Assembly: GCA_963969395.1 (NCBI GenBank)
Contig: OZ017796.1
Span: forward strand, 38,430,243-38,494,242
Length of the DNA stretch: 64,000 bases
Origin: Pseudoscleropodium purum
Lineage: Eukaryota > Streptophyta > Bryopsida > Hypnales > Brachytheciaceae
Reading direction: 5' to 3'
Positions 45,953 through 62,596 of the stretch are shown here, piece by piece; positions within the stretch are counted from its first letter, which is position 1; each line of letters opens with the position of its first letter. Both the position numbers and the translations under genes were made by a program. The notes below the pieces were generated by a model. That model was given only the letters and a program-made list of their open reading frames with translations. It was not told where the DNA came from and ran no database searches.

Positions 45953-48900
45953 TCAGCGTGCATATTGCTGAAGGAAGAGCCGTCGCGTCTCACTGTCCAA
46001 ATCTTCCAAAGCCGTTGCCGCTACTTCAATGTCGATGGTATGACGCTCAAATTCGTCGCCCAAGTCAATTTCAATTCCATCTTGAATTGTCTCCGATGTC
46101 CCACCAAGCCCGAAATCATGCAACCGACGCACAACCTGCCTCATGAATGGCCTGTCTGCGCTTCTCTTCCTCGCACACCACAATGCCAACTCCACTAAGC
46201 TCACAAGCTCGTCTCTGATGAAATCGTCTCTCAAATTGGGATCTGCTAAATCATCCAATTGTTCGTCTCTCCAAGCTTCAGCAACCTGCCATCAAATGCC
46301 AACAGGTGCACGCATTGATAGTCTGTAGCCTTCCAGGCCATTCAACATAGGCAAAAATAGAAATTCACCCACTACAGTAACGTTTGTAGCAACGTTTAGC
46401 AAATGGCTGAAAACACTAAAACGTGATTGATTCCAAGAATGGCATTCAGCATCGCCACTAAACATTGTCCAAAGTGAACAACGTTTCAGAACATGCTGGC
46501 TGAAAAACGTGCGTGGAATGTAGCTAATAACGTTGCTGAGAATTTCGCTAAACCATCCAAATTCTAGTTGTGATGTAGATTCTTTCTCTGATTCAATTCC
46601 TCTCTATTGAAACTAAATGCATCACGCCTATAATCACCAGCTCTTCCAAAACAAACGTTCAGCATGGGGAGCTAGCTAACCTTCTGAGCAATGTCCAAAT
46701 GGGGTCGTCCAGTGAGAATCTCCATCAACACAACTCCAAATGCGTACACATCACTCTTCTCTGTTAGCATTCCTGTCTTATAGTATCTGCAACCCAAGTG
46801 AAACCATCAGACTTGCTTAAAAATCAGCATGGATTACGTACCATGATGGTGGGACGGCAAACATTGAATCTAGAACTCTCGGAGATTGTCAAGGAGAGCT
46901 TGCACAGAACCTAGCAAAGAGATGAAAATGAAAGGATTGGGGAAGCTGCAAGTCTCACTCTTGGTCGAGATATCCCGGAGTGCCTTTCACCAACGTTGTG
47001 ACGTGAGTGGCATTTTCCTGCCCGATGGTTTTCAGTTTGGACAACCCGAAATCCGCCACTTTGGCCACTAGTTGGTCGGTGAGCAAAATGTTGGTGCTCT
47101 TCACATCGCGGTGGATGATGGGCGGAGAGCATTTATCGTGCAGGTACTCCAGCCCTACACAAGCAGTTTTCAGGACAATCACCCAGGGAAACTTGCACAC
47201 CATCACCAGTCATCACTGGAACCCTAAAACACTCGAAACCCACAATGTTAATGATGCAAATTGTAATTTACCTTCTGCAACTTGAAGAATGATGTTGGTT
47301 CTTTGTCGCCAGCTCAAAGGATTCTCAGCACTGCTCTCCCCTGCGGACCGATTGAGCTGTGTCAGTCAGCTAGGCAACGATTTTGAATCAGTGTAGCAAC
47401 ATGAAATTTGCTTCAATGCAATGCTCGTCATGAGACAGGTTCGCACTCACCTTGCAATCGGTGGTGAAGGTCTCCACCACCCATGAATTCGTAGATCAAG
47501 ACCTGGTGTGTGCGAGTGCAGCTGAACCCAACCAGAGACACCAAGTACTTGTGATGCACCATGGACAATAGCTCGATCTGCAGAAGCACAATGCTCATGA
47601 TCACTTGTGTTTCAGGTAATAATTAACAACTTCCCTGTCTAGACAAGAGACCATACTGAGCCTGATTTTCAAGAAAAATCGAACTCAAGTTGATTTTTGT
47701 GGATTGAAGAATGTTCAGTTGTCAGATATTGAGCTCCGAGTCTACCTCATTGAAAAACTCCGACTTGCTTTGGCGCGAATCGCTGACAACACTTTGGCTG
47801 CCACCTCTCGCCCGTCCGGCAACTTCCCTTTATACACATCACCGAATCCCCCACGCCCAATCGCATTCTCGTAGTTCTTGGTTGCTTGTTTAATCTTTGC
47901 CTGCGAAAATGCGTAGGACGTCCCCCCTTTGGCCCTCAGTTGCTTCTGGAATGCCTTCTCAGGTGGGTCGAGAAATCCTACTGCACGAAACAGGAATACC
48001 CATGGATACAATTATGATGTGCATCTCTTCCCTTGCAAATGTACTTGATCAGTAAAGAAGTCGACGACTACAAGGAAAATGAACTGCACAGATTCTGGGT
48101 TCAAGAAATTGACAGGCTTACTTTCTCGTGTACAGAAATACATCCCCAAGACGATCAAGGCCAGAACGAAAACTCCACCAACGCCACCAGCTAGGACGCT
48201 CACGAATAATGGAATAGACGACTTTCCTGAATGCGAGGACAGGGCGGTGTTCCAAATGACATTACTACTGTTCGTAATGTCACTGATGCTCCAAACTCCG
48301 TCGATCGGATTCCCTTTCAAAATCCAATTTGCACCACTGACGCCAGATCCGGGGCTGCTCCAGATGGCTCTCGAATTCGAATTGGTGTCAAGAATTTGAA
48401 GGGAACCATCGGACTGGAGAGTCAGCTGACAGACACTACTGTTCGTCCTCGTCGACTGAGACTCCCACAGAGTTTTACTTATCTGACCGTCATCAAGACT
48501 ACTTTTGGATTGCAAATTGCAGTCCGTTCCAAGCTCCAGAGTAAATGAGCTATTCGTGATTTGCAGTTTTTCGCCCGCGGAAAGGAAGTAACCTGCCGGC
48601 ATGTATGAAAAATCAGAAAGAGAGTTATTATTCGGTATCCATGGCTTGTAGTCGGTATCCGAACGAAAGTCCGCGTAGTTAAGCGCCGAAAAATTAGGGA
48701 ACCTTTCTTGAATTGCAACAACGAGGTTGGTCCACGGAGTAAGTTTGTCGGAGTCGTAGAAGGTCGAACTGATATCGTCTCCAAGAAGCAGAAATGAACG
48801 GTTGACCCCAGCGACCGGCTGTAGAGCCCATAGAGAATAATTGTATGTTAGAGTTTGACTGACGACGCCTGTGAGATTGTAGATGACGAAGTTGCCATCG

Positions 48901-49184
48901 CCTTGCATCCAGAAGGAGCAATCAGGCGTGGGTGCAGAGTTTGAGAAAGTGGTGCCTACAACAGCCTGAGAATACTCATAAACCACAAGATTGCAGTCAG
49001 GATGCATCACTAAGGAGACCTGGCCGTTTGGGCTTGTGAGGTATTGTTTGGGATTCACTCGAAGACCTGGGTCAGTGCCCACGAGGACATTTACTGCTAA
49101 TACTCCTCGACCTCGAACCCATTGCATAGTAAATAGGACAAGAACAAGAAGCACGAACCAGTGACTCATCATCTTCGGACGCAT
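45953..49184 (-). pseudogene. Bulb-lectin-type receptor-like kinase with a one-base frameshift
   Basis: Seven exons: 49184-48122, 47980-47746, 47577-47451, 47340-47272, 47154-46959, 46786-46681 and 46285-45953 (TGA). Exon 1 gives a signal peptide (WFVLLVLVLFTMQW), an ectodomain with mannose-lectin-like motifs (HPDCNLVVYEY, GDGNFVIYN) and several NxS/T sites, and one membrane helix (VFVLALIVLGMYFC). The kinase shows GRGGFGDVYKG, the VAAK lysine, [34 protein letters not shown] and [12 protein letters not shown], so catalytic motifs are complete. All junction phases agree except across exon 2. There the sequence GCGATTCGCGCC (around 47770-47785) lacks one base relative to the frame that restores QSKSEFFNE. 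Translation as given stops soon after. About 709 residues if that base were present. Either a recent loss-of-function allele or a sequencing error. Confidence 0.85.
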
Positions 49185-50991: not shown

Positions 50992-50999
50992 ATGAAATT
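50992..50999. repeat. 8-bp target-site duplication, left
   Basis: ATGAAATT directly abutting the left terminal inverted repeat at 51000. The identical ATGAAATT abuts the right terminus at 62589-62596. Confidence 0.85.
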
Positions 51000-51009
51000 C
51001 AGGGTTGAC

Positions 51010-51165
51010 ACGACGTCCGGACGCAGATGCTGTGTCCGCAGCGTTCGCTGACATTCGCGGTCCCGGCGGACGTAGCGTCCGCCGGGACCGCCCCGTCTGT
51101 CCGCCCCACCCGCCCAGATGGCCCTATTTCCCCCGACCACCCTACCCAAACTGCCCCGCGGTCAC
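51010..51165. repeat. GC-rich GGACGG/CCGTCC block, left subterminal
   Basis: Very GC-rich tract inside an AT-rich region. It contains a perfect palindrome at 51059-51089: 14-bp arms GGTCCCGGCGGACG / CGTCCGCCGGGACC around TAG. The palindrome includes the subterminal motif shared with the right end. A plausible binding region for a transposase or host factor; that role is inferred. Confidence 0.75.
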
Positions 51166-51624
51166 TCCTTTAATCTTTAAACAATTAAATGTTAAATGAA
51201 GTGCAATGGTTCGCGATTTGTTATTAAAACAATGTCTCTCATAAGTTGAAAGATTATAAAGTTTGACCACGAGTCCATGATAGTCTTGAAAGTATGAAAA
51301 AATTCCAATTCATTTTCAAAAGGCAAACTAAAAAAATTTGTGACTTCAAATATATATATATACTATTTAAAAAATCAAGATCAATACAAATACAAACATA
51401 ATCAATATGGGCAAAATGTATTCAATTTAATGTAGAATATCATACATTGTGCACATTTGGCTAATTGCACATATAATTTTTTTCATTCCAACTCTATATT
51501 TCTAAACTAATTTTTAATGCCTATATAACCTATTCAAGTATTCAACTACTACTTCTGCACTACCAATCTAATATAAATGGCGGAAATGTTCATCTGGCAT
51601 CGGCCAACGATATGTATTAGAAAA

Positions 51625-53069
51625 TCACGTAATCACATGGGTCAAACTAGTATTTTCATCGTCAGTCTTCGAAGAAATGCGCTTCAAGTAAGCATAAAAC
51701 ACTTTTGCAAAGTCATGAAAGGGAAATTGTGTCGCACTAGGTGTTTTAAGTAGCACGTTGAAATACGCCTTTGACATGTTGTTTCCATTCATCCGCTGAG
51801 CAATTTTTCGGACGGCATACTCTTCCGACTTACGTGAATACATCGGAATGACTTCCACATCTGCACCTGCTTTATGCAAATATGCAATACGTGGATCCAC
51901 CCACCATCTCCTCTGCAAAGTTTGTTTCATCTCATCTGCTGATGTGAATGTGTACAAAGATTTCATTGGCTGAGAAGCTAAGGTGGTCATGCCCCAATCG
52001 CAAACCCCAATATACACACGTGCCTCATCCTCTGGAAAATGCAACAAGATGTTGTTCGGAGAAAGATCATTGTGCAAATGTCCAGCAAGATGCACTGCAT
52101 ACATTATATGCATAAACACCCATGTCAACTCCGTGCGCTTCTTCTGATATCGCCCTAAACGGTGAGCTTTTACAACCTCCTCTTCGGTTGGATTCATATA
52201 CTTCAAACGGATTTGAATGTTGTCTGGATAGTCCTTATCCATATTTAACATTTGTCAAAGAGTTCCACCATTCCACCATTCCACCAATACGCATAATCTT
52301 CACACGTTGTTCCGTGCACTACAACAAACTGTATCACACTCGCGTGTGGAATTCGAAAAGCCATTGATTCGTTTTGATGTTCTAACTTTGCAAAATCGAG
52401 TCGAGTTTGGTGGTGAATGGATTTCTTTGCCGCAAACTCCCAATAAGGAAGTATTCTTGGACATCCTTCAATACGAATCTTTCAAATCGTTGCATATCCA
52501 CCTCTTATCGTTCTATCATCAACAGCAATCACGCGTGCTGTATCTGGAAGTGCTATGAGGTGCCGTTTGGTCCTTTCCGCTTCAGCAACTCCATCATTGC
52601 TTTTCTACCAACCAATTAAACCAACTCGACTGTGCTTTTTGGCGAATGGAGCACATCGCCCCCTAAACAAGTCCGCTTTCAGAATCACTTCTTCAAACTG
52701 GGCGTCATTGGGTCGATATTCCTTGCCATATTTAACCAAAATGACTTTGGAATTCCACAAAGCGTCATGAACCTTGTTCTCCAAACATTTGGTGAAGTAC
52801 GTTTTATACATTTCGTCATGCCACTTCGCCACATTTAATGCATCCAACAACATCTGTGTCATGTCTACCTTGAATTTAGACACGCACTCCTCTTGATATC
52901 TGATGTACTTATTGTTTAAAGACAATGTTGTTTCCGATTCATAAAATTGAACGATGCGCTCAATCATGAATTTCTTGCATTCTTCCGAAGGACTTTGGCG
53001 AGCTACTTCCAAGTTCGATGGTCCCTCTCCATGTTTAAGCTTCGCAACCTTCTTCTTCCCCTTCGGCAT
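51625..53069 (-). pseudogene. Element gene B: atypical protein-kinase-like protein (decayed)
   Basis: Reads from ATG 53069 to a stop at 51625. A basic N-terminus (MPKGKKKVAKLKHGEG) and a helical region of about 140 residues precede a kinase-like fold. Visible are a possible nucleotide loop (TIRGGYATI), an AAKK lysine, a catalytic loop HLHNDLSPNNILLHF (HxD...N kept) and CDWG in place of DFG. HxDLSxxNIL with a non-DFG metal motif is unlike normal plant kinases and closer to divergent kinase-like families of mobile or effector genes. Disabled by TAG (52605-52607), TGA (52482-52484) and a frameshift near 52255; reading resumes as MLNMDKDYPDNIQIR. A GGACGG array starts about 200 bp upstream. Confidence 0.65.
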
Positions 53070-53264
53070 CGTGACAAATGAAATTAATATAGATCAAATT
53101 TTTTAATTTGAAATTGAATTCACGCGCAAGTGTCCAAAAAATTGGCAACAAGGGGGCCCCAATAAACCACTCTTGCCTTGCCTCGGAAAGGAGCCAATGG
53201 AGGATGAACCACCAAGCTCTCCGCTCCACCTTGCATTCACAAGGGGCAAAGCAAAAGTGACAAT

Positions 53265-53575
53265 GCGGACGGCCCGTCCGCCCATCTTATTGGGGCGCGG
53301 ACGGCCCCAAACCGTCCGCCTGATCGGACGGGCCGGGGGTGGCGGACGTATCGGCCGTCCGCCTCCCCGAAACCCTCGAGCCCCGTCCGCCCCATTGGAC
53401 GGCCCCAAACCGTCCGCTTGATCGGACGGGCCGCGGCTGGCGGACACATCAGCCGTCCGCCTCCCCGAAACCCTACAGCCGCGTCCGCCCAATCGGACGG
53501 CCACGGGCGGATAAATCTGGCGTCCGCCCGATCGGACGGGCACGGGCGAACAAATCAAGCGTCCGCCCGATCCGA
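53265..53575. repeat. GC-rich array upstream of gene B, with 98-bp and 39-bp tandem units
   Basis: Two full 98-bp units, 53299-53396 and 53397-53494, each starting GGACGGCCCCAAACCGTCCG. A partial third unit passes into a 39-bp repeat (53492-53530 and 53531-53569, starting ATCGGACGG). Inverted GGACGG/CCGTCC pairs are dense. The array is upstream of gene B on the minus strand. Confidence 0.85.
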
Positions 53576-54170
53576 TTTATTTTTCATATTTGAAAATAGA
53601 ATCTAAAGAAGAACCACTAATTGTCTAATTTGGGCATTTCTTCATACGAATAAGAAATCATTTTAGTTTTTAGCAATCGTTGAATGAAAAATAAAAGAAT
53701 TTCAAATATTCAAATAATTTAATCTTTCATAAATTAATTAGAAATACATTTATATCATTTACGAGTTTCTAAATGTAATAAATACACAACAATAATTTCA
53801 AAATACACACCATGCTAGTACATATTTAACCTCGAATGCTAAATTCAAAAATAAACATAATATGGCTCTTACAAAATTACATTTCTTCTTCATATTTTTA
53901 TTATTTATCAAAGTCGCTTATAGCCGTATACATCAACGCTATTATAAAATAATACAATGATGTCTTCAACAATATGCTTGCCTACATACATACTTGGTGT
54001 ACACTATTATACATCACTTTTTGAAAAAGTGAACAAAATTGTTGTTCAAAATTGTTCTATTCATTTAAAGTTTTGTACTACTTCTACCAATCTAGTGCTC
54101 TATACTTGTCGTGAGAGTAAAAATGAGAAAATCGAGCAAACACATGCTCACTATATACTTGCATGTTTTT

Positions 54171-55463
54171 TTATTCGAAATCTGAATCGGACTCAAATTG
54201 TTGACCGCTGCCTCTTCTTTGTACTCCAATGAACGGACCACCTCCGTAGTTTCCGTAATATCCACTCGGTGCACCTCCTTGTCCATAACTTGAACCTCCA
54301 AAAGTGGGAGGAGGAACCGGAGTAGTAGGCTCTGATCCTCTTTCATTTGAAGCCCCGTAATAAGAGGCCCCATGATGCCCGTATGAATCACTTCTAGTTG
54401 ATCCCGGATAGTATTGGGCGCTTCCGTGAAGAGAGCAACTATACTGCGGAGTTACATGGCTTCCTCCACTACCTTCGAAGCCCACTTGAGTGGGCGTCGT
54501 ATAATATAAACCAGATTCAGTAGACCTACCATAGTGTGTGTTGCCATAGCTACCTATCCCACCTAGAGAGCCAATTTCAGGGGGAGTGCCATAACGAGAA
54601 CCAACTGCACTTGAACCACCATAATGCGTGGATCCATAGCTCCCTCTTCCACCTTCATATCTATTTTGAGGATCGTAACCAGAGTATGAACCACCTCTTC
54701 CATGTTCAGATTCTCGCGTTCCATGTTCATGTCCGTAGGACCCACCATGCCTATCTTGCCGTCCACGATCTTGAAGGCTTCTACGTGTTCCCTCTTGCAT
54801 TTGTTGCTCGAATTCAATTCGTTCTCGTTCTTCTACCCGCTCGTGTCTAACTCCAAATGCGACAGGCGCTTGCATATCATCGTCATCATCGTCATCTGTC
54901 CACGCATCTTCAGCATCTCGTAGAACAACTGAAGGTTGTTGTAGATAACCTCGATTAGACCACTCTGGCATGCAATCGCTTGCGCCCCTCCATTGTGTAT
55001 CTATAACGGCATCCGTGCTCGTATAGTTCTCTACATTGCGACCTGTAGCAGTACGCCAGTCCACGTCCTTGTGGAGTATAATCTCTGCCCAAACCATTGC
55101 CATAACATTATAATTCATTATATTTGGTTTGGCGCTTTTAATGCCAAGAACTCGATGCACTTGTGTGTATCATTGTTTGAAGTGCTTACTTTGGCACGTA
55201 GACATTTGTCCTTCCCAACGTGGCGCTTGGTGCTCTACATGTTCACGTCGCCAAAGTTTTTGAATGTGAGTCATTTTTACATACTTCTTGCACATTGAGC
55301 AATCCCACATTTTTGTTGGTTCTTCTTCCCATCCCGTTTCACCTACGCACAATGGATCGGCCCAAGCATCCCAATCGAACAATTGGGGTCTTCCCTTTCG
55401 ACTACTTTTTTTGGGTGTTCTATCTTTCGGCATGATGAAGCCGAAGCAAAGAGAATGAAACAA
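54171..55463 (-). pseudogene. Element gene A: Cys-motif protein with Gly/Tyr/Ser-rich tail
   Basis: 430 codons from ATG 55463 to 54171 in one frame, broken only by TGA at 55170-55172. N-terminus MPKDRTPKKSSRKGRPQLFD is basic. Next is a small domain with WDCSMCKKYVKM, HIQKLW, STCQSKHF, then HRVL and AMVWAEIILHKDVDW. The spaced Cys and His suggest a zinc-binding fold; the same block begins gene C. An acidic run (about eight Asp) is followed by a low-complexity tail rich in Gly, Tyr, Ser and Gln (SYGSTHYGGSS-type units), resembling intrinsically disordered RNA-binding or condensate-forming segments. Homology to a known transposase was not seen. The 55.64-kb GC array lies about 180 bp upstream and contains a TATATATAT run. 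Confidence 0.65.
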
Positions 55464-55639
55464 TTAGAAAGCTTAAGAACCAAAATTTTGATTTAATTAA
55501 TTAATTAAAATTTTACAAGTGTGAACTTTGTGAAAATTTATAACAATGCCACAACAATCGTTCACTCAATATGGAAGGGGCGTGCAGAGCTTCCAATGCA
55601 CTGGTCCGCCCACTCCAAAAGAGAACGATTGTTCAGAAT

Positions 55640-55765
55640 GAGCCGTCCGCCTCCCCATATATATATGCGGACGCCCCGAGGCAGACGTCCAGATTATGCG
55701 GACCACATCAGTCCGCGTGTCAATCGGACGGCCCTAACTGGGCGGACGGGGCGGACGGCTCATGT
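55640..55765. repeat. GC-rich array upstream of gene A
   Basis: GGACGG/CCGTCC-rich block with an embedded ATATATATAT (55657-55667), which could serve as a TATA box for gene A on the minus strand. It shares GCCGTCCGCCTCCCC with the array upstream of gene B. On its outer side lies GTTGAACCCTAAACCC (55759-55774), similar to the element's own terminus and to a telo-box. Confidence 0.65.
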
Positions 55766-55799
55766 TGAACCCTAAACCCAATGAAGGAAATTGTTCTTT

Positions 55800-56015
55800 T
55801 TTCAAAATCTCATAGTAGAGATGTTTAACCCGTAAAGTTCTTTTCACTAAAAACACTTCAAAACTCCCAATAGTAGTGCAAATATCAAGTCTTAGAAGAA
55901 AAATACTTTTGGGCATATGTAACCGTAGGATCTTGTAGTAAATTAGTTGGAAAAAATGTGGAAAAAATTTTAGACAAATCCACCATTTAGATTGTAAGAT
56001 ATTAGATATTGAATG
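55800..56015 (+). repeat. Dispersed repeat family 3, copy 1
   Basis: Resembles 63060-63250 in the same orientation. Shared blocks: TTTTCAC.AAAAACACT.CAAAACT, AGGATCTTGTAGTAAA.TAGTT, ATGTGGAAAAAATTT and TAGATTG.AAGATAT. One copy is inside and one outside the 11.6-kb element. Confidence 0.7.
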
Positions 56016-57993
56016 TTTCATTTAAGGGGGCTACTCAATTATGTCTATTAATGAACAATTGATAGGCTAACAAACCTAACTTAGCATGTATTTTAATATT
56101 TGTTGCAATTGTTTTAGGAATATTATAACATAATACTATTATAATATTCTTATAAATGATATAATACTAAATCATTTCAAAATCAACAACATTCGAACAC
56201 AATCTGTCAATCTTGTCTTTCATACTCCTTTAATGATATATATATATATATATATAAATATATATATACATACATAAAATATATTAGATAAATCAACATG
56301 AACAAATCAATGATTATATATTTCATAGATTTATTCTTCATCAATCAAATAAGAGTGCATGTGCAAATATAGACAAAGATGGTTTCTCCATTTGTTGCCA
56401 AAAAATAGATAAACAAATAGAGAAAGATATGAAGTGAATGTTACTTAGAGAATTGAAAAGAAAGAAATTGAAGTACTCAATTGCATTTTATTAAATTGGA
56501 AAATTGCATGTGGATGACATGAATTAATCTTCATAGATGCTAAACTTATACGAGTTGCATTTCAACATTTATGATTTATGCAATTGATTGAATTGAAAGC
56601 TCTTGTAATTACATTTTCAAATTTTCGATTCAATCATTCAAATTTGCAAGAGTGATTTATGATAGATTTATAACTTTAAATGTGAAAGCATTCAATGCCT
56701 TTATGCGTTTGTTCATCAATATATTAATTTTAGATAAATAATATATATTTTTTATAACATATGCATAAACCATTACATTAAAAAAAACAAAAAACTAAGA
56801 GCCAAGCCAAATAGGCTGGTCAAATGAAGAGAACAAGATAATAAGAGTCCTATGAGACAGAAAAAAAAGGAAAAAAAAGAAAATATCAAAAGGATTCAAA
56901 GGAAGAAACAAGATGCATTCTTGCAAGACCGTAGAATACATAATGATTTCAAAATCCAAACACAAATATATTTTCTATTTCAATGAGAGCCAAAAATGAA
57001 CTACCTTGCTCTCAAAGATTGTATAATGTACACGTTATACAAAATGAACATATAACAAAAAGAGTAGAAGACATCGTTTATCATGATTGAAAACTGAAAT
57101 GATTTTTTTTTTCTATGTAGAATATTTTATGAAATGTAACAATGTATTTAATTATCATAATAATTGGTAGAAATCTTTGTGCAATACATAGAAACATTTC
57201 ATTCATGTGGAATTTTTTCATTTATTTAGGATTAAAATGGAAATATTATACTCTACAAAGTACAAACCAAAAACAATACCATATACCTAAGTTCAAAAGT
57301 TTGCAATTGTTTCGTGAATTCATTTTGAAAACTCAAACAAAGAAATATTTTATAATCAATATCTTGTTCATTTGAATCATTTCAAAAATCGAATTTCGAA
57401 TTCAATTCCTATTTATAATAAAAATTATATTTGTCAATTTTTTAGATCTCTAAAGAATGAACCCTCTTTTTTAAAATTAATATTTAAAAACATCTGAAAT
57501 AAGAATATTGGAATTACCCTTCAAAATAAATATAGCACATGTATAATGTATTCTACTCCACCAACTCAAGTAACGAATTTTTCTATGTTTTTAAGAAAAA
57601 ATATAGCCATACATGATTTGAAAGTTAAAACATTGATTCTTTTTCTTTGTTTTCAAATCTAATTAAAATTTCATTAAGAAATATGAAAGACTCGATGTTC
57701 ATTTGAAGATCGTGATGCACTTTTAATGAGAAATCACAACCTTTCATTAAATATCATGAGGTTGAAATCCATTAAACTGTTATTCTAATTATGTATTGGG
57801 GCCTTTTTTTAAAATTTCATTTGCTTACAATGAAAATGGAATTGATTATTTTTGCAAAACATTTGATTTCCTAATGAACTTTAAAAAAATCCCCACCATC
57901 TTCAGATCTTCTCAAAACCTATTTACATGAATAATATCAGTAAATAATTCAAGCATATTCAACTTAACCACATTCCCCTCATTCGTAAAACAA

Positions 57994-58044
57994 TTTAGGG
58001 GAGAAAAGAAAAGGTTTAGGGTAATTAGGGTATAAGGTTTAGGG
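57994..58044 (+). repeat. Interstitial telomere-like TTTAGGG motifs
   Basis: TTTAGGG at 57994-58000, 58015-58021 and 58038-58044, plus TTAGGG at 58025-58030. TTTAGGG is the plant telomere unit. The motifs are scattered rather than a clean array, so they may be telo-boxes upstream of gene C or chance. Confidence 0.6.
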
Positions 58045-58189
58045 TTTACATTTTTTTTTTTTTTAAATGACAAACTAATTATATTGATCCTCATTTAGCA
58101 GTGATTATTAGGCTGTTTTATTTTTGAAATGTTACCGCTCTTTTTGAATAATAATGGCCTCATAGGATGCACCAATTGACAGCTGGGCG

Positions 58190-58525
58190 GATGCCGTCAG
58201 TGGTCAGTGTTTAAGTGGGGCGGTCGGTGTGTCCAAAACGCGGACGGCGTCGGAAGGCGGACACTGCGGACAGTCCGGGCGAACGCGCCGGTTGGACGGG
58301 CGGTCGGACAGGGCGGTCGATCGTGGCGGTCAGTCAGGGTGGTCGGATGGGGCGATCGGATGGGGCGACGGGCGGATGGGGCGGTCGGACGGGGCGGTCG
58401 GACGGCGCGTCCGCTGCCGAAGCGGACGTCGTCGGTCCGCGCGGCGAACGCGAGGTTTGGGGCTGCTTTGCGCGGTCCGGGGCAGGTCCGGTGGTGGACG
58501 GCCTCTAGGTCCGGCGGCGGACGGC
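58190..58525. repeat. GC-rich array upstream of gene C
   Basis: GGACGG/GGTCGG-rich tract with imperfect short tandem units of the type GGGGCGGTCGGAC (about 58345-58410). It ends in GGACGGCTATAAGGG, whose TATAAG (about 58527) could be the TATA box of gene C. The gene's ATG is about 220 bp downstream, the same spacing as for genes A and B. Confidence 0.75.
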
Positions 58526-58744
58526 TATAAGGGTGGAGTGACTTTTCATTTCTTCTCACTTCAATTCTCCTTCGGTGCCAAGTTGGATGTGCTACTATTG
58601 CTTTATGCGCTAGTTGCTCCTACGGGGTGGAGAGTTGAGGTCTTCTATCTTGTGTTACTGTGTTGCGGTTGATGCCATCACTTTTGACTATCACGTGAGA
58701 TTTTTTTATTCACTTCAATTGGTTATTGAATCCAATTGACAATC

Positions 58745-61700
58745 ATGAACGGCGAAGGTGATCGAAATATGGATGGGGTGACTCCGGGAAGCGAAGTGAA
58801 GAAAAAAAGCAAAGTGAAGGGGGCTACGCACGACCTTCGGCTTGACATTTTAAATGACCCTACAATTAAAGCAGAGAGCAGGTGGGAAGATGAAGATGCG
58901 GAGTATTGGACATAAAAAATGTGCAGGACCTATGTTAAAATGTACCACATTAACAAGTTGTGGCCTCAAGAGTCACACAGGAGTCATACACGGGATTTTT
59001 GTTGTAAACCATGGACTTGCAACAACAAACATTTTGTCCATCGATCTGAGGAGGTGTGGCGTGTTCTATTCGGAAACAAATGCAGAAGTAAAGGCTATAT
59101 TAATTATAGCGTGGCGTGTATGGTTTATGCGGAACTTATATTAGAGCGCAAGATCGATTGGAGCACGTTTCCGATGACAACAGCTTGCCCACTTCTACTT
59201 GAAGCCAATCAAAAGGACATTCCCGACTTGTACAATTCAGAGGGAGAAACAGAAAAAGTATTAAAAAATACTATTGAGGTGAAAACGGATGGTGTGGAGA
59301 AAGCTTCAAATGTTGAAGAATTACGGTCTGTACAATCTCCAACAAAAGCAATTAATGAAAGCTCTTCGAAAAATGTGGAGAAAGATGCGAAGAAAGATGT
59401 AGAGGCACAGGAGGGTGAAGTCTTTTCCACAGCTCCAACGCGTTTGACCTTTACACCAAATGTTGCGGTACAAACGCAAACGGAGTTTGTAAACAAAGGC
59501 AAGGTTTGCACGGAACGCGGGGAAACTTCAAAAAGTAAAGTAGACGAAGTCTTGGCGGAGAAAGTGACAAAGGCTAATGCTACAATTGATAGTCTGATAG
59601 CCAACAATTGTTTTGATAGTTTGGTCTACAAATCTCTGCTTGTGCATTTAGGCGTTGAATCTATTCCAGCGTTAAGTTTAGAAGACAAAGTACATACGCC
59701 TCGTGGACAAGGCGTGACGATTGATAATATATCCTCATTATGGAGTTCCGAGCGTAAAAGGCGGGCGGAGGAGTTTCCGTTTACAACGGCATTGCCAAGT
59801 CCTCTACATCGAACCTTGCAAGACATGTCCAATCCAAAACAATTGGAAAATCTTTTGTAGCTCTCGGTTCAGTTTGCTAACCTTCATGAAGAAATAGGCG
59901 AATCGTCAAACCCCGATGATGGTGCTACTACTGTTCCAATGAGTCCACTTGCAGATCCAAAGAATGTTGCACATATACTTGATACAGCTTTCAAGATGAC
60001 GATGTCAGCTGAATTTTTAGCGCAAGCTGCTCCGACTTTTATGAATTTGGCCAAAGAGTTTTCTTTAATAGCACCAGAGATGTTGAAAGGTGCTATAGTA
60101 TTTCAGAATCTCACGAAGACTTTCGGACCACTTTTCGAAGAAAGAGATGTTCACATACTACAATTGGTGGAATATGAGAAGAAAATTGCTGACCTTGAAG
60201 GAGTGGAAGCAAGGTGCAAAGTGTTGGAGTTGAAATTAAAGACTTCGGAGAGTGAGGTTGAACATTTAAATTAACAATCATCTAGGCAAATGGAGGAGTT
60301 GATGAAGATGCGTAAACGGATTGCAGAATTGCAAGGGACCTTCAAAAATCCAAGTGAGGTTGCAATCTCACCAGTGATTGTACTCGGAGACAATCAAGAG
60401 ACTCAAGAGAGTGAAGATAAGCTCTCTCTTCCTTTTGATAAGGCCGAAGCAAGCGACAATCCTGCCATTGTGAATGTACAAGAAAGTCACGACATAAGCA
60501 TGTTAAAAGCGACACAACAACCATCAATGGAAAAGCTTTCATCCGTTTACGTGAATGCGGAGATGCAAACGGAGTGTTGTGACTTTGAAGAGTTGAAGCA
60601 TAAATTGGAGGAGGCAATTGAAGCAAAAGGAATCGTTGAATCCAAGTTGAATCGATTGCAATTGTTCTTGGATTTGAAGAAGTTTATGCCATCTAGCAGT
60701 TTGGACTCTCGATGGTTAGCATGGGTACAAAGACTCCAAGACAGACCCTCTATAGTATCTCGAGCAATGGCAGGTCTTCAAACATTGGCAATGGAGTCGA
60801 ATGAAAATTGCGATGCCATTCAAAGCTCTTTGAGTTGGTTCAAGACTATGTTTGACCAACATCCTTCAAAGGGATATACGGAGATCACATGTTGGGGAGA
60901 CATAGATGCCATGTTTGAGCGGTTAAACCACACAAAGAAGGACCAAGCTCCACCCATCAATTGGGCCTTGGAAGTAGAGGAAGGATGGGTCCCTTACAAC
61001 ACACTTTCAACACACATCAATGTGAAAGACAAGCGAGTGGTGCATGCTTGTGATCCAGCCTCTCCAATCTTGGATGGTTGTTGTAGCCTTTGCCAAAGCC
61101 TCTTCGGACCGGAAGGTGCGGTAACCATGGGCCAATGTCGCCACACTTTCTATGTCACTTGCATTGTGAAAGCATCACTCATTCGTTCGGTGTGTGCCGA
61201 GTGTCGTAGTCCATTGAGTGCTAGGTTCTACGAAATGTTTGGTATCTTGGAAGCTATGCCTCCAGGCCACGAGTACAATCGTTGGAATCTTCCTCTTGAT
61301 CAAGCGCTGTACAAATTTCAAAATTATCAACATTGGGGGAAGCCAATCCGGTGGAATGCAAATGAACAGAGGCATGATTTGTACGAGGAATCTCAGCAAC
61401 CATTGGATTTGGATGTGTGGATGACTCACAATAGAGAGGTGGAATTGCGGGCTCGAGGAATCGTAGATGACGCGGCCCGTGAAATGTTTTGTCGCAACAT
61501 GGGGGGACATTGGAGCTTGCAACACGAAAAGTTCTTTCGTTTTCTAGATAAAAAAGTGGAGAGAGGACCAGAAGACAATTGGGTGGAGGTGAACCATGGA
61601 AAAGAGTTCGATGAGCAATATAAGGCATACGACCACACCCTCGTAGGTAGGGCCCTTCTATTGTCAAAGTTGGAAGAGGCTGCAAAAGTTCGTGCTGTCT

Positions 61701-62143
61701 ACGATACAAATGGACTAACAAGCACAGGACATTCATCTGTAGATGTGGCAGCAGCATTTGATAGGCGCATTGGCGATATTATAGGGCATTGGAAGGCTTT
61801 CCTATTGGATGGAGACTGCCTCACAGTATGGCAAGGAAAAGGAGATGATGAAGTTGTTCAAGCGATGGTAGATCGTGTGGAGAGCAACTTGAGAACCTTG
61901 AAGGCAGACGAAGTCGATTTATCACCGAAAAGAAAACAAAAAAGGAAGCGTGAAGAGGACAATGACTTCTCTCCGGAAACCAAGAAACAATTTCATAAGG
62001 TGGACATCGAAGTTCAATCTAGAGGGCGAATAGTCCGTCCAAGTCAACAACGGTCAACTCGTCAATCATCTGCTAAACTCCTCGGTACAACAGATTTTCC
62101 TTTTGTTTTGGGAGAAGGTAGTGGTCCATCCGGTGGAAAGTAG
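58745..62143 (+). pseudogene. Element gene C: Cys-motif, coiled-coil and RING-like protein, three in-frame stops
   Basis: A single frame of 1,133 codons (58745-62143) interrupted only by TAA 58913-58915, TAG 59858-59860 and TAA 60272-60274, with no frameshift in 3.4 kb. N-terminal domain (MCRTYVKMYHINKLW, CMVYAELILERKIDW) is homologous to gene A. The middle is acidic and Ser/Thr-rich, then a coiled coil (LVEYEKKIADLEGVEARCKV and following). A RING-like domain follows: CCSLC, then MGQCRHTFYVTC, then CAEC. The fifth ligand position (Cys/His in RINGs) is Tyr. A long conserved-looking C-terminal region (HEYNRWNLPLDQALYKF onward) and a basic NLS (PKRKQKRKREED) complete it. RING-like domains suggest ubiquitin or SUMO ligase activity, or protein binding; function is inferred. 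The last 617 codons remain open. Confidence 0.7.
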
Positions 62144-62439
62144 GATTTGAGGAGAATTTTGTTTTTTAAAAACAATGGTCCTTTCATTGTTTAAAAACAA
62201 AAAAGAATGTGAAAGATTTAGATCTTAAAAAGATCGTATAGGATTCAATAGTGATATTGGAACTATGTTTTCATGTATTTTGTTTATACATATATATTTA
62301 TATATAAAGATGCTATATTTTCATTTGCGTATAAAAATATTTTTATATGTACATCTTATTTTACTTGGATGCATTCATTTGTGATTGTATAACATTCAAA
62401 TTACATAACAATATAAAATTTTCTAATGACTAATGGCAA

Positions 62440-62575
62440 TGCGAAGTCCGCCCCGTCCATCCGCCCCTCGCGTTCGCCTTCCGACGGCGGGAGGGACGCT
62501 ACGTCCGCTAGTGTCCGGGTGTCCGGATGTCCGGACGTCCGGAAAACGGATGCTATTTTGGGGCGGACGTTGAGA
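62440..62575. repeat. GC-rich block, right subterminal, with 8-bp tandem repeat
   Basis: Right-hand counterpart of 51010-51165. It contains four tandem 8-bp units of the type YGTCCGGR (62512-62543) and the inverted copy of the subterminal motif (62494-62508). It ends just before the terminus GTCAACCCTG. Confidence 0.75.
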
Positions 62576-62588
62576 TTCGTCAACCCTG

Positions 62589-62596
62589 ATGAAATT
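62589..62596. repeat. 8-bp target-site duplication, right
   Basis: ATGAAATT immediately after the right terminus at 62588, identical to 50992-50999. Confidence 0.85.

What the first reader, a model, noticed from the sequence alone, without database searches (positions are those of the whole stretch)
51000..62588. An apparently undescribed 11.6-kb cargo-carrying DNA element with hAT-like ends
Seen: exact 10-bp terminal inverted repeats (CAGGGTTGAC), identical 8-bp flanks (ATGAAATT), and a shared inverted subterminal motif. Inside are three large protein genes, none of which looks like a hAT transposase. Known: 8-bp duplications and CAGGG termini are typical of hAT elements, which are usually 3-5 kb with one transposase gene. 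Inference: this is either a giant non-autonomous element carrying a multigene cargo, or a family with an unrecognised transposase.
Basis: partly seen in the sequence, partly recalled or inferred. Interest (0 to 1): 0.9.

Follow-up and report, generated by a model that had tools for sequence, protein, structure and literature searches.

The report
Transposase-less moss hAT element, three genes
This is one of many copies of an 11.6-kb jumping DNA element, probably from a moss, that has no transposase of its own but carries three protein genes, and is probably moved by sister copies that share its ends and its kinase gene and carry an ordinary hAT transposase where this one carries other genes.

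Summary
In detail: exact 10-bp TIRs at 51000 and 62588, identical 8-bp flanks, and a GTCCGGAC palindrome found only twice in 64 kb, once near each end. It is a high-copy family. Of ten further copies read, six have both exact TIRs, and those six have different, perfect 8-bp duplications. The genes are A, kinase-like (antisense); B, an unknown N-terminal domain plus a Gly/Ser/Tyr-rich tail (antisense); and C, the same domain plus coiled coil and RING-H2 finger. None resembles a transposase.

The missing transposase is in sister elements. A nested copy has the same right terminus and 2.5-kb spacer, but a 1155-aa hAT ORF where C should be. By coordinates, 30 of 86 gene-A hits have this transposase downstream, 11 have B, 6 have C, none has transposase with B or C, and 44 have none in the capped lists. 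So two forms share ends, kinase and spacer: A+transposase (about 9.7 kb) and A+B+C (11.6 kb). MITE-like 257-317-bp copies also exist.

Best reading: the A+B+C form is non-autonomous and mobilised in trans. Homologues elsewhere keep kinase and RING residues, but copies within this genome show no detectable selection. What A, B and C do is inferred.

The parts
50992..50999 (.). left 8-bp target-site duplication ATGAAATT
   Evidence: six other copies have their own perfect 8-bp duplications
51000..51009 (+). left TIR CAGGGTTGAC
51000..51165 (+). left terminal G+C-rich block (70% G+C) with GTCCGGAC palindrome at 51015-51022
51568..53069 (-). gene A: 497-aa kinase-like protein in intact copies; also present in the transposase-bearing form; 4 stops in this copy
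53260..53580 (.). G+C-rich repeat block between A and B (70% G+C)
54171..55433 (-). gene B: 420 aa in intact copies, unknown N-terminal domain (about 55044-55376) and Gly/Ser/Tyr-rich tail; 1 stop in this copy
55777..58290 (.). A+T-rich spacer, mostly non-coding, 93-95% identical in the nested transposase-bearing copy
58180..58530 (.). G+C-rich block upstream of gene C (72% G+C)
58745..62143 (+). gene C: 1132 aa in intact copies; N-terminal domain shared with B, coiled coil, RING-H2 finger (about 61070-61207); occupies the place of the transposase gene; 3 stops in this copy
62445..62588 (-). right terminal G+C-rich block (65% G+C) with GTCCGGAC palindrome at 62529-62536
62579..62588 (-). right TIR CAGGGTTGAC
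62589..62596 (.). right 8-bp target-site duplication ATGAAATT

Best explanation
The window element is a decayed, non-autonomous member ('ABC form') of a high-copy hAT transposon family in what is probably a moss. The family has a transposase-bearing form of about 9.7 kb: left end, kinase gene A (antisense), A+T-rich spacer, hAT transposase gene, right end. In the ABC form the transposase gene is replaced by gene C, and gene B lies between A and the spacer; the ends, A and the spacer are kept. The transposase of the sister form would bind the shared ends (CAGGGTTGAC and subterminal GTCCGGAC) and move the ABC form in trans by cut-and-paste with 8-bp target duplications. A, B and C are then accessory proteins that help the family persist: my guess is phosphorylation (A), binding of element ends or chromatin by the shared B/C domain, and ubiquitin ligation by C's RING, acting on host silencing or on transposase level. 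Shown: the two forms, shared ends, duplications of the ABC form, abundance, domain content. Inferred: mobilisation in trans, and everything about what A, B and C do.
For: Ten further ABC copies read; 6 of 10 with both exact TIRs and 6 of 6 of those with their own 8-bp duplications. A nested copy has the family's right terminus (2 differences from the window copy in its first 59 bases), the 2.5-kb spacer at 93-95% identity to seven ABC copies, and between them a 1155-aa ORF with DUF659 (E 1e-28) and Dimer_Tnp_hAT (E 1.8e-9). Of 86 scored gene-A hits 30 have the transposase downstream, 29 of them at 3.65-4.31 kb; 11 have B, 6 have C, and none has transposase with B or C. Four of 64 scored transposase hits have an exact left end 5.75-6.06 kb upstream, using only the 100 listed of 1430 left ends. 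13 of 40 nested-type right ends, the nested copy itself included, lie 1767-1823 bp beyond a transposase hit. One copy has left end, transposase and right end within 9744 bp, C44:9475800-9485543.
Against: No transposase-bearing copy was read to its left end, and no 8-bp duplication was shown for that form; the junction predicted beyond the nested copy was not found, 0 matches with up to 3 mismatches. 44 of 86 gene-A hits have neither partner in the capped lists. Mobilisation in trans is untested. Within the genome pN/pS of A, B and C is no lower than in wrong-frame controls, so these copies give no evidence that the genes are kept by selection.
Confidence: 0.85

Rival explanations
1. Passenger (Pack-TYPE-like) cargo: B and C are genes swept up by a hAT element and amplified by it, with no benefit to the element.
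For: Within this genome the copies evolve like neutral DNA: pN/pS 0.61, 0.72 and 0.53 for A, B and C against 0.42-0.83 in wrong frames. Pack-TYPE hAT elements are known in plants (passages of PMC8903248).
Against: Homologues of A, B and C as distinct as 28-86% identity exist elsewhere; 18 of 18 C homologues keep the RING pattern; B and C homologues of 58% and 57% identity both have a longest contig of 17,649 bases, most simply one contig. That points to a B+C pair older than this genome's copies. Whether host source genes exist was not tested.
Confidence: 0.3
2. B or C is itself an unrecognised recombinase, and the ABC form is autonomous.
For: B and C share an N-terminal domain with a confident AlphaFold model and no match in Pfam, PDB or viral structures. 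C has long stretches that could not be modelled (mean pLDDT 45).
Against: A recognised hAT transposase lies in elements with the same ends. No nuclease or recombinase domain was found in A, B or C by Pfam at E up to 1; the recognised part of C is a RING finger.
Confidence: 0.05
3. The two forms are separate families that only resemble each other at the termini by convergence or by exchange of ends, and the hAT transposase does not act on the ABC form.
For: Beyond the first about 150 bp, sequence at the right end differs between the forms: only one of seven ABC copies gave a megablast match there, 156 bp at 85%.
Against: The 2.5-kb spacer is 93-95% identical, gene A is shared, and eight gene-A hits, three of them with the transposase downstream and one with C, lie 1.97-2.08 kb from an exact left end.
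Confidence: 0.05

Closest known systems
hAT superfamily (Ac/Ds, Tam3; general features partly recalled)
   Same: 8-bp target duplications, short CAGGG-type TIRs, subterminal repeats, sister form with DUF659 and Dimer_Tnp_hAT transposase, non-autonomous derivatives
   Different: the ABC form is 11.6 kb with three genes and no transposase; the transposase-bearing form also carries a kinase-like gene
Fungal hAT7 elements with a TET/JBP dioxygenase (PMC12730594; abstract and passages seen)
   Same: a hAT-superfamily element carrying an extra enzyme gene that may counter silencing
   Different: 7-bp duplications, fungi, the extra enzyme is a dioxygenase beside the transposase; here a kinase-like gene, and in the ABC form the transposase is absent
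TET-bearing IS3EU elements (PMC12730594; passages seen)
   Same: transposase and a kinase gene in opposite orientations in one element
   Different: other superfamily, 6-bp duplications, alpha-kinase; here a protein-kinase-like fold by sequence
Pack-TYPE hAT elements of plants (PMC8903248; passages seen)
   Same: non-autonomous, TIRs and 8-bp duplications, carry coding DNA, multi-copy
   Different: Pack-TYPE elements hold captured gene pieces; here three long genes with full-length homologues elsewhere and a fixed order in the seven complete copies read
VANDAL elements with VANC anti-silencing proteins (search listing only)
   Same: working analogy: an element-encoded non-transposase protein that could counter silencing
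   Different: no sequence relation tested; other superfamily (recalled)

Membership tests
hAT superfamily (window element) | 8-bp target-site duplication | tested here: met
   window copy and 6 of 6 further copies with both exact TIRs
hAT superfamily (window element) | short TIRs of CAGGG type (recalled as typical) | tested here: met
   10-bp exact TIRs; 6 of 10 further copies keep both
hAT superfamily (window element) | hAT transposase in the element itself | tested here: not met
   no hAT domain in the nine ORF pieces scanned at E up to 1
hAT superfamily (sister form) | hAT transposase with dimerisation domain | tested here: met
   DUF659 and Dimer_Tnp_hAT above cut-off in the nested copy; 64 scored relatives of 1162 candidates
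hAT superfamily (sister form) | 8-bp target-site duplication | tested here: inconclusive
   predicted junction of the nested copy not found; no other copy of this form was read at its flanks
Non-autonomous hAT mobilised in trans (as Ds by Ac) | shared termini with a transposase-bearing element in the same genome | tested here: met
Non-autonomous hAT mobilised in trans (as Ds by Ac) | excision or insertion by that transposase | not testable with these tools
   needs an assay
Pack-TYPE transposon | no transposase, TIRs and duplications present | tested here: met
Pack-TYPE transposon | cargo derived from host genes of the same genome | not tested
MITE | short non-coding element (hundreds of bp) | tested here: not met
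   11.6 kb with three genes; related 257-317-bp places exist (16 of 40 scored hits)
KDZ transposons | KDZ transposase | tested here: not met
   no such Pfam match in the nine ORF pieces at E up to 1
Active protein kinase (gene A) | catalytic residues | tested here: met
   K217, E236, N333-D334-x-S336-P337-x-N339 and D357-W358 invariant in 12 homologues; loop pattern in 26 and CDW(G/A) in 31 of 32 full-length homologues; Pkinase score is below Pfam's cut-off; roles of the residues recalled
RING-H2 protein (gene C) | C/H zinc-ligand pattern | tested here: met
   18 of 18 homologues; zf-RING_11 passes the cut-off in P0001 but not in the window copy

The most novel reading that the evidence does not exclude
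A bipartite transposon: two complementary high-copy elements share ends and a kinase but split the gene set, transposase in one and the B/C pair (a new domain plus a RING protein) in the other. Both would be needed for long-term spread, as in a multipartite virus, with B and C supplying an anti-silencing or transposase-control function in trans.
Probability: 0.15. Interest if true: 0.85.

Novelty: new variant of a known kind. Interest (0 to 1): 0.62.

Why it matters
Large non-autonomous DNA transposons are usually seen as deletions or random gene captures. Here two forms of one family keep different gene sets between the same ends, with a kinase-like gene in both. If B and C work for the element, it is a natural case of division of labour between transposons. 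It would also give a testable set of plant transposon accessory proteins (kinase, RING protein, and a domain with no fold match found) that may act on silencing. For annotation, many 'kinase', 'RING' and 'hypothetical' genes in moss genomes may be transposon genes.

Tried and rejected
Unrecognised transposase in A, B or C: rejected as the leading reading once the hAT-bearing sister was found. KDZ: no match. Selection within the genome: pN/pS of 0.53-0.72 looked like constraint, but wrong-frame controls gave 0.42-0.83, so I withdraw that argument. Duplication of the nested transposase copy: the predicted 29-base junction was not found, 0 matches with up to 3 mismatches. Repetitive flanks for an empty-site test: none of 14 flanks matched elsewhere in the letters held, so no empty site was sought. 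Gene C structure: mean pLDDT 45, unusable. B/C domain fold search: no match. Relatives in viral contigs: none. Genome and metagenome contigs were not scanned. Counting MITEs with a gapped pattern: form not accepted; a joined-ends search was used instead. Literature: ten searches listed no paper that I recognised as describing such a moss element; this covers only the held open-access library, by listings, plus passages of two papers.

Full report
What was checked. The termini, the 8-bp flanks and the subterminal palindrome are in the sequence exactly as described. A 10-bp match is not significant in 64 kb, so the weight comes from the genome. The window lies in a 313-Mb assembly of 52 contigs. 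The first 301 bp found 40 scored places of 2633 first-look candidates; apart from the window itself they are 90-95% identical. The last 300 bp gave 40 scored of 2927, the others at 83-91%. A 37-bp right terminus occurs 2608 times and a 40-bp left terminus 1430 times with up to 3 mismatches, with no match to the reversed control patterns. First-look figures are unconfirmed candidates and hit lists are capped, so I quote no copy number for any form.

Full copies. I read ten further copies, ten of the 14 places other than the window (71 scored of 855) that had no stop in gene C's last 617 codons; selection therefore favours less decayed copies. Six of ten have both exact TIRs, are 11,345-11,802 bp long, and each has a perfect 8-bp duplication of its own (GGTATGAA, TATAAAAC, CATGTGTA, ACAATGAA, ATGCATAT, ACAAAAAT; window ATGAAATT). 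In the other four at least one exact TIR was not found in the letters read; in one of them (L025) about 4.9 kb of other sequence interrupts gene C, so the stretch read did not reach A and B. The seven complete copies, window included, are 94.6-96.6% identical to each other.

The partner. While checking hAT transposase hits (150 scored of 664) I found one inside an ABC copy on C42. Reading it showed a second element whose right terminus has the family sequence, with 2 differences from the window copy in its first 59 bases. Inside, where C should be, is a 1155-aa ORF whose first 692 residues hold DUF659 and Dimer_Tnp_hAT, followed by the same 2.5-kb spacer, 93-95% identical to the seven ABC copies. 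Further in from the terminus the right ends differ: only one of seven ABC copies gave a megablast match there, 156 bp at 85%. Of 64 scored transposase relatives (of 1162 candidates), 4 have an exact left end 5.75-6.06 kb upstream; only the first 100 of the 1430 left ends are listed. From the separate list of 150 dimerisation-domain hits, 6 have a left end at 7.4-7.8 kb, two of them the same copies, and one at 5.5 kb. 13 of 40 right ends of the nested type, the nested copy included, lie 1767-1823 bp beyond a transposase hit. The copy at C44:9475800-9485543 has left end, transposase and right end within 9744 bp.

Two gene sets. Of 86 scored gene-A hits (of 1541 candidates), 30 have the transposase downstream (29 at 3.65-4.31 kb, one at 5.59 kb), 11 have B at 1.0-1.4 kb, 6 have C (five at 7.1-7.5 kb, one at 5.3 kb; five of the six also have B), none has transposase together with B or C, and 44 have none of the three in these capped lists. 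Eight gene-A hits have an exact left end 1.97-2.08 kb away: three with the transposase, one with C, four with neither listed. Gene A is therefore a gene of the whole family, and transposase and B/C are alternatives in the copies seen.

Short copies. A search with the two joined ends of the window element (150 + 140 bp) gave 40 scored places of 4308 candidates; 16 of the 40 span both ends in 257-317 bp at 74-78% identity, and two exact end pairs lie 289 and 290 bp apart. These look like MITEs; their duplications were not checked.

Against the reading. The duplication predicted for the far side of the nested copy was not found (0 matches), so that copy may be rearranged. The left part of a transposase-bearing copy is unread. 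Within this genome pN/pS is 0.61, 0.72 and 0.53 for A, B and C, but wrong-frame controls give 0.42-0.83, and differences are spread over the three codon positions (A 1128/1027/1008, B 870/755/689, C 2350/2416/2680), so the copies look like neutral debris of recent sources. Constraint is suggested only by homologues elsewhere: C at 39-79% identity apart from one 96% partial match (P0004), A at 28-74%, B at 37-86%.

Other genomes. Two gene-A homologues are named Ceratodon purpureus, one of them standing for 126 member sequences (P0041, P0055). That is the basis for calling the host a moss, by inference. Homologues of B (P0083, 58%) and C (P0002, 57%) both have a longest contig of 17,649 bases in the same source, most simply one contig carrying both.

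How it most likely works. Established knowledge of hAT elements (recalled) says that the transposase binds terminal and subterminal repeats and cuts and pastes with 8-bp duplications. The ABC form has such ends and a transposase-bearing sister, so mobilisation in trans is the simplest account, as for Ds by Ac. Why two gene sets are kept is open. Fungal hAT7 elements with a TET/JBP dioxygenase, and TET-bearing IS3EU elements with an alpha-kinase gene opposite to the transposase, are precedents for extra enzymes in DNA transposons (abstract and passages of PMC12730594). I recognised no published hAT family that swaps its transposase for another gene pair in the ten searches named under Tried and rejected; that is limited to this library and to listings.

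Verdict. Real and well supported as a large non-autonomous hAT form with an identified transposase-bearing relative. The unusual parts are the shared kinase-like gene, the B/C pair with a domain of unknown fold, and the two gene sets that were never seen together.

Noticed in passing
L067/L068 (G000:C42:24549200-24565199): Nested insertion: a transposase-bearing element inside an ABC copy, with the expected far-side junction missing from the genome search.
   Followed up: partly
G000, MITE-like places such as C1:2418056-2418344 and C41:16717787-16718076: Short 257-317-bp elements with both family ends, apparently common; their duplications were not checked.
   Followed up: partly
L058-L060, L065, L066: A related group of hAT transposases in the same genome (clustered), some in frames over 1100 aa; no family terminus within about 1.5 kb; its ends are unknown.
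   Followed up: no
53260-53580, 55590-55760, 58180-58530: Internal G+C-rich blocks full of CGGACG/CGTCCG repeats, like those at the two ends, beside each gene; possibly regulatory or transposase-binding sites.
   Followed up: no
P0020: A gene-A homologue (74%) filed under a Bacilli metagenome assembly; most likely plant DNA wrongly binned.
   Followed up: no
48012-49184 (-): A 390-aa ORF outside the element with a B_lectin match below Pfam's cut-off (E 3e-5).
   Followed up: partly
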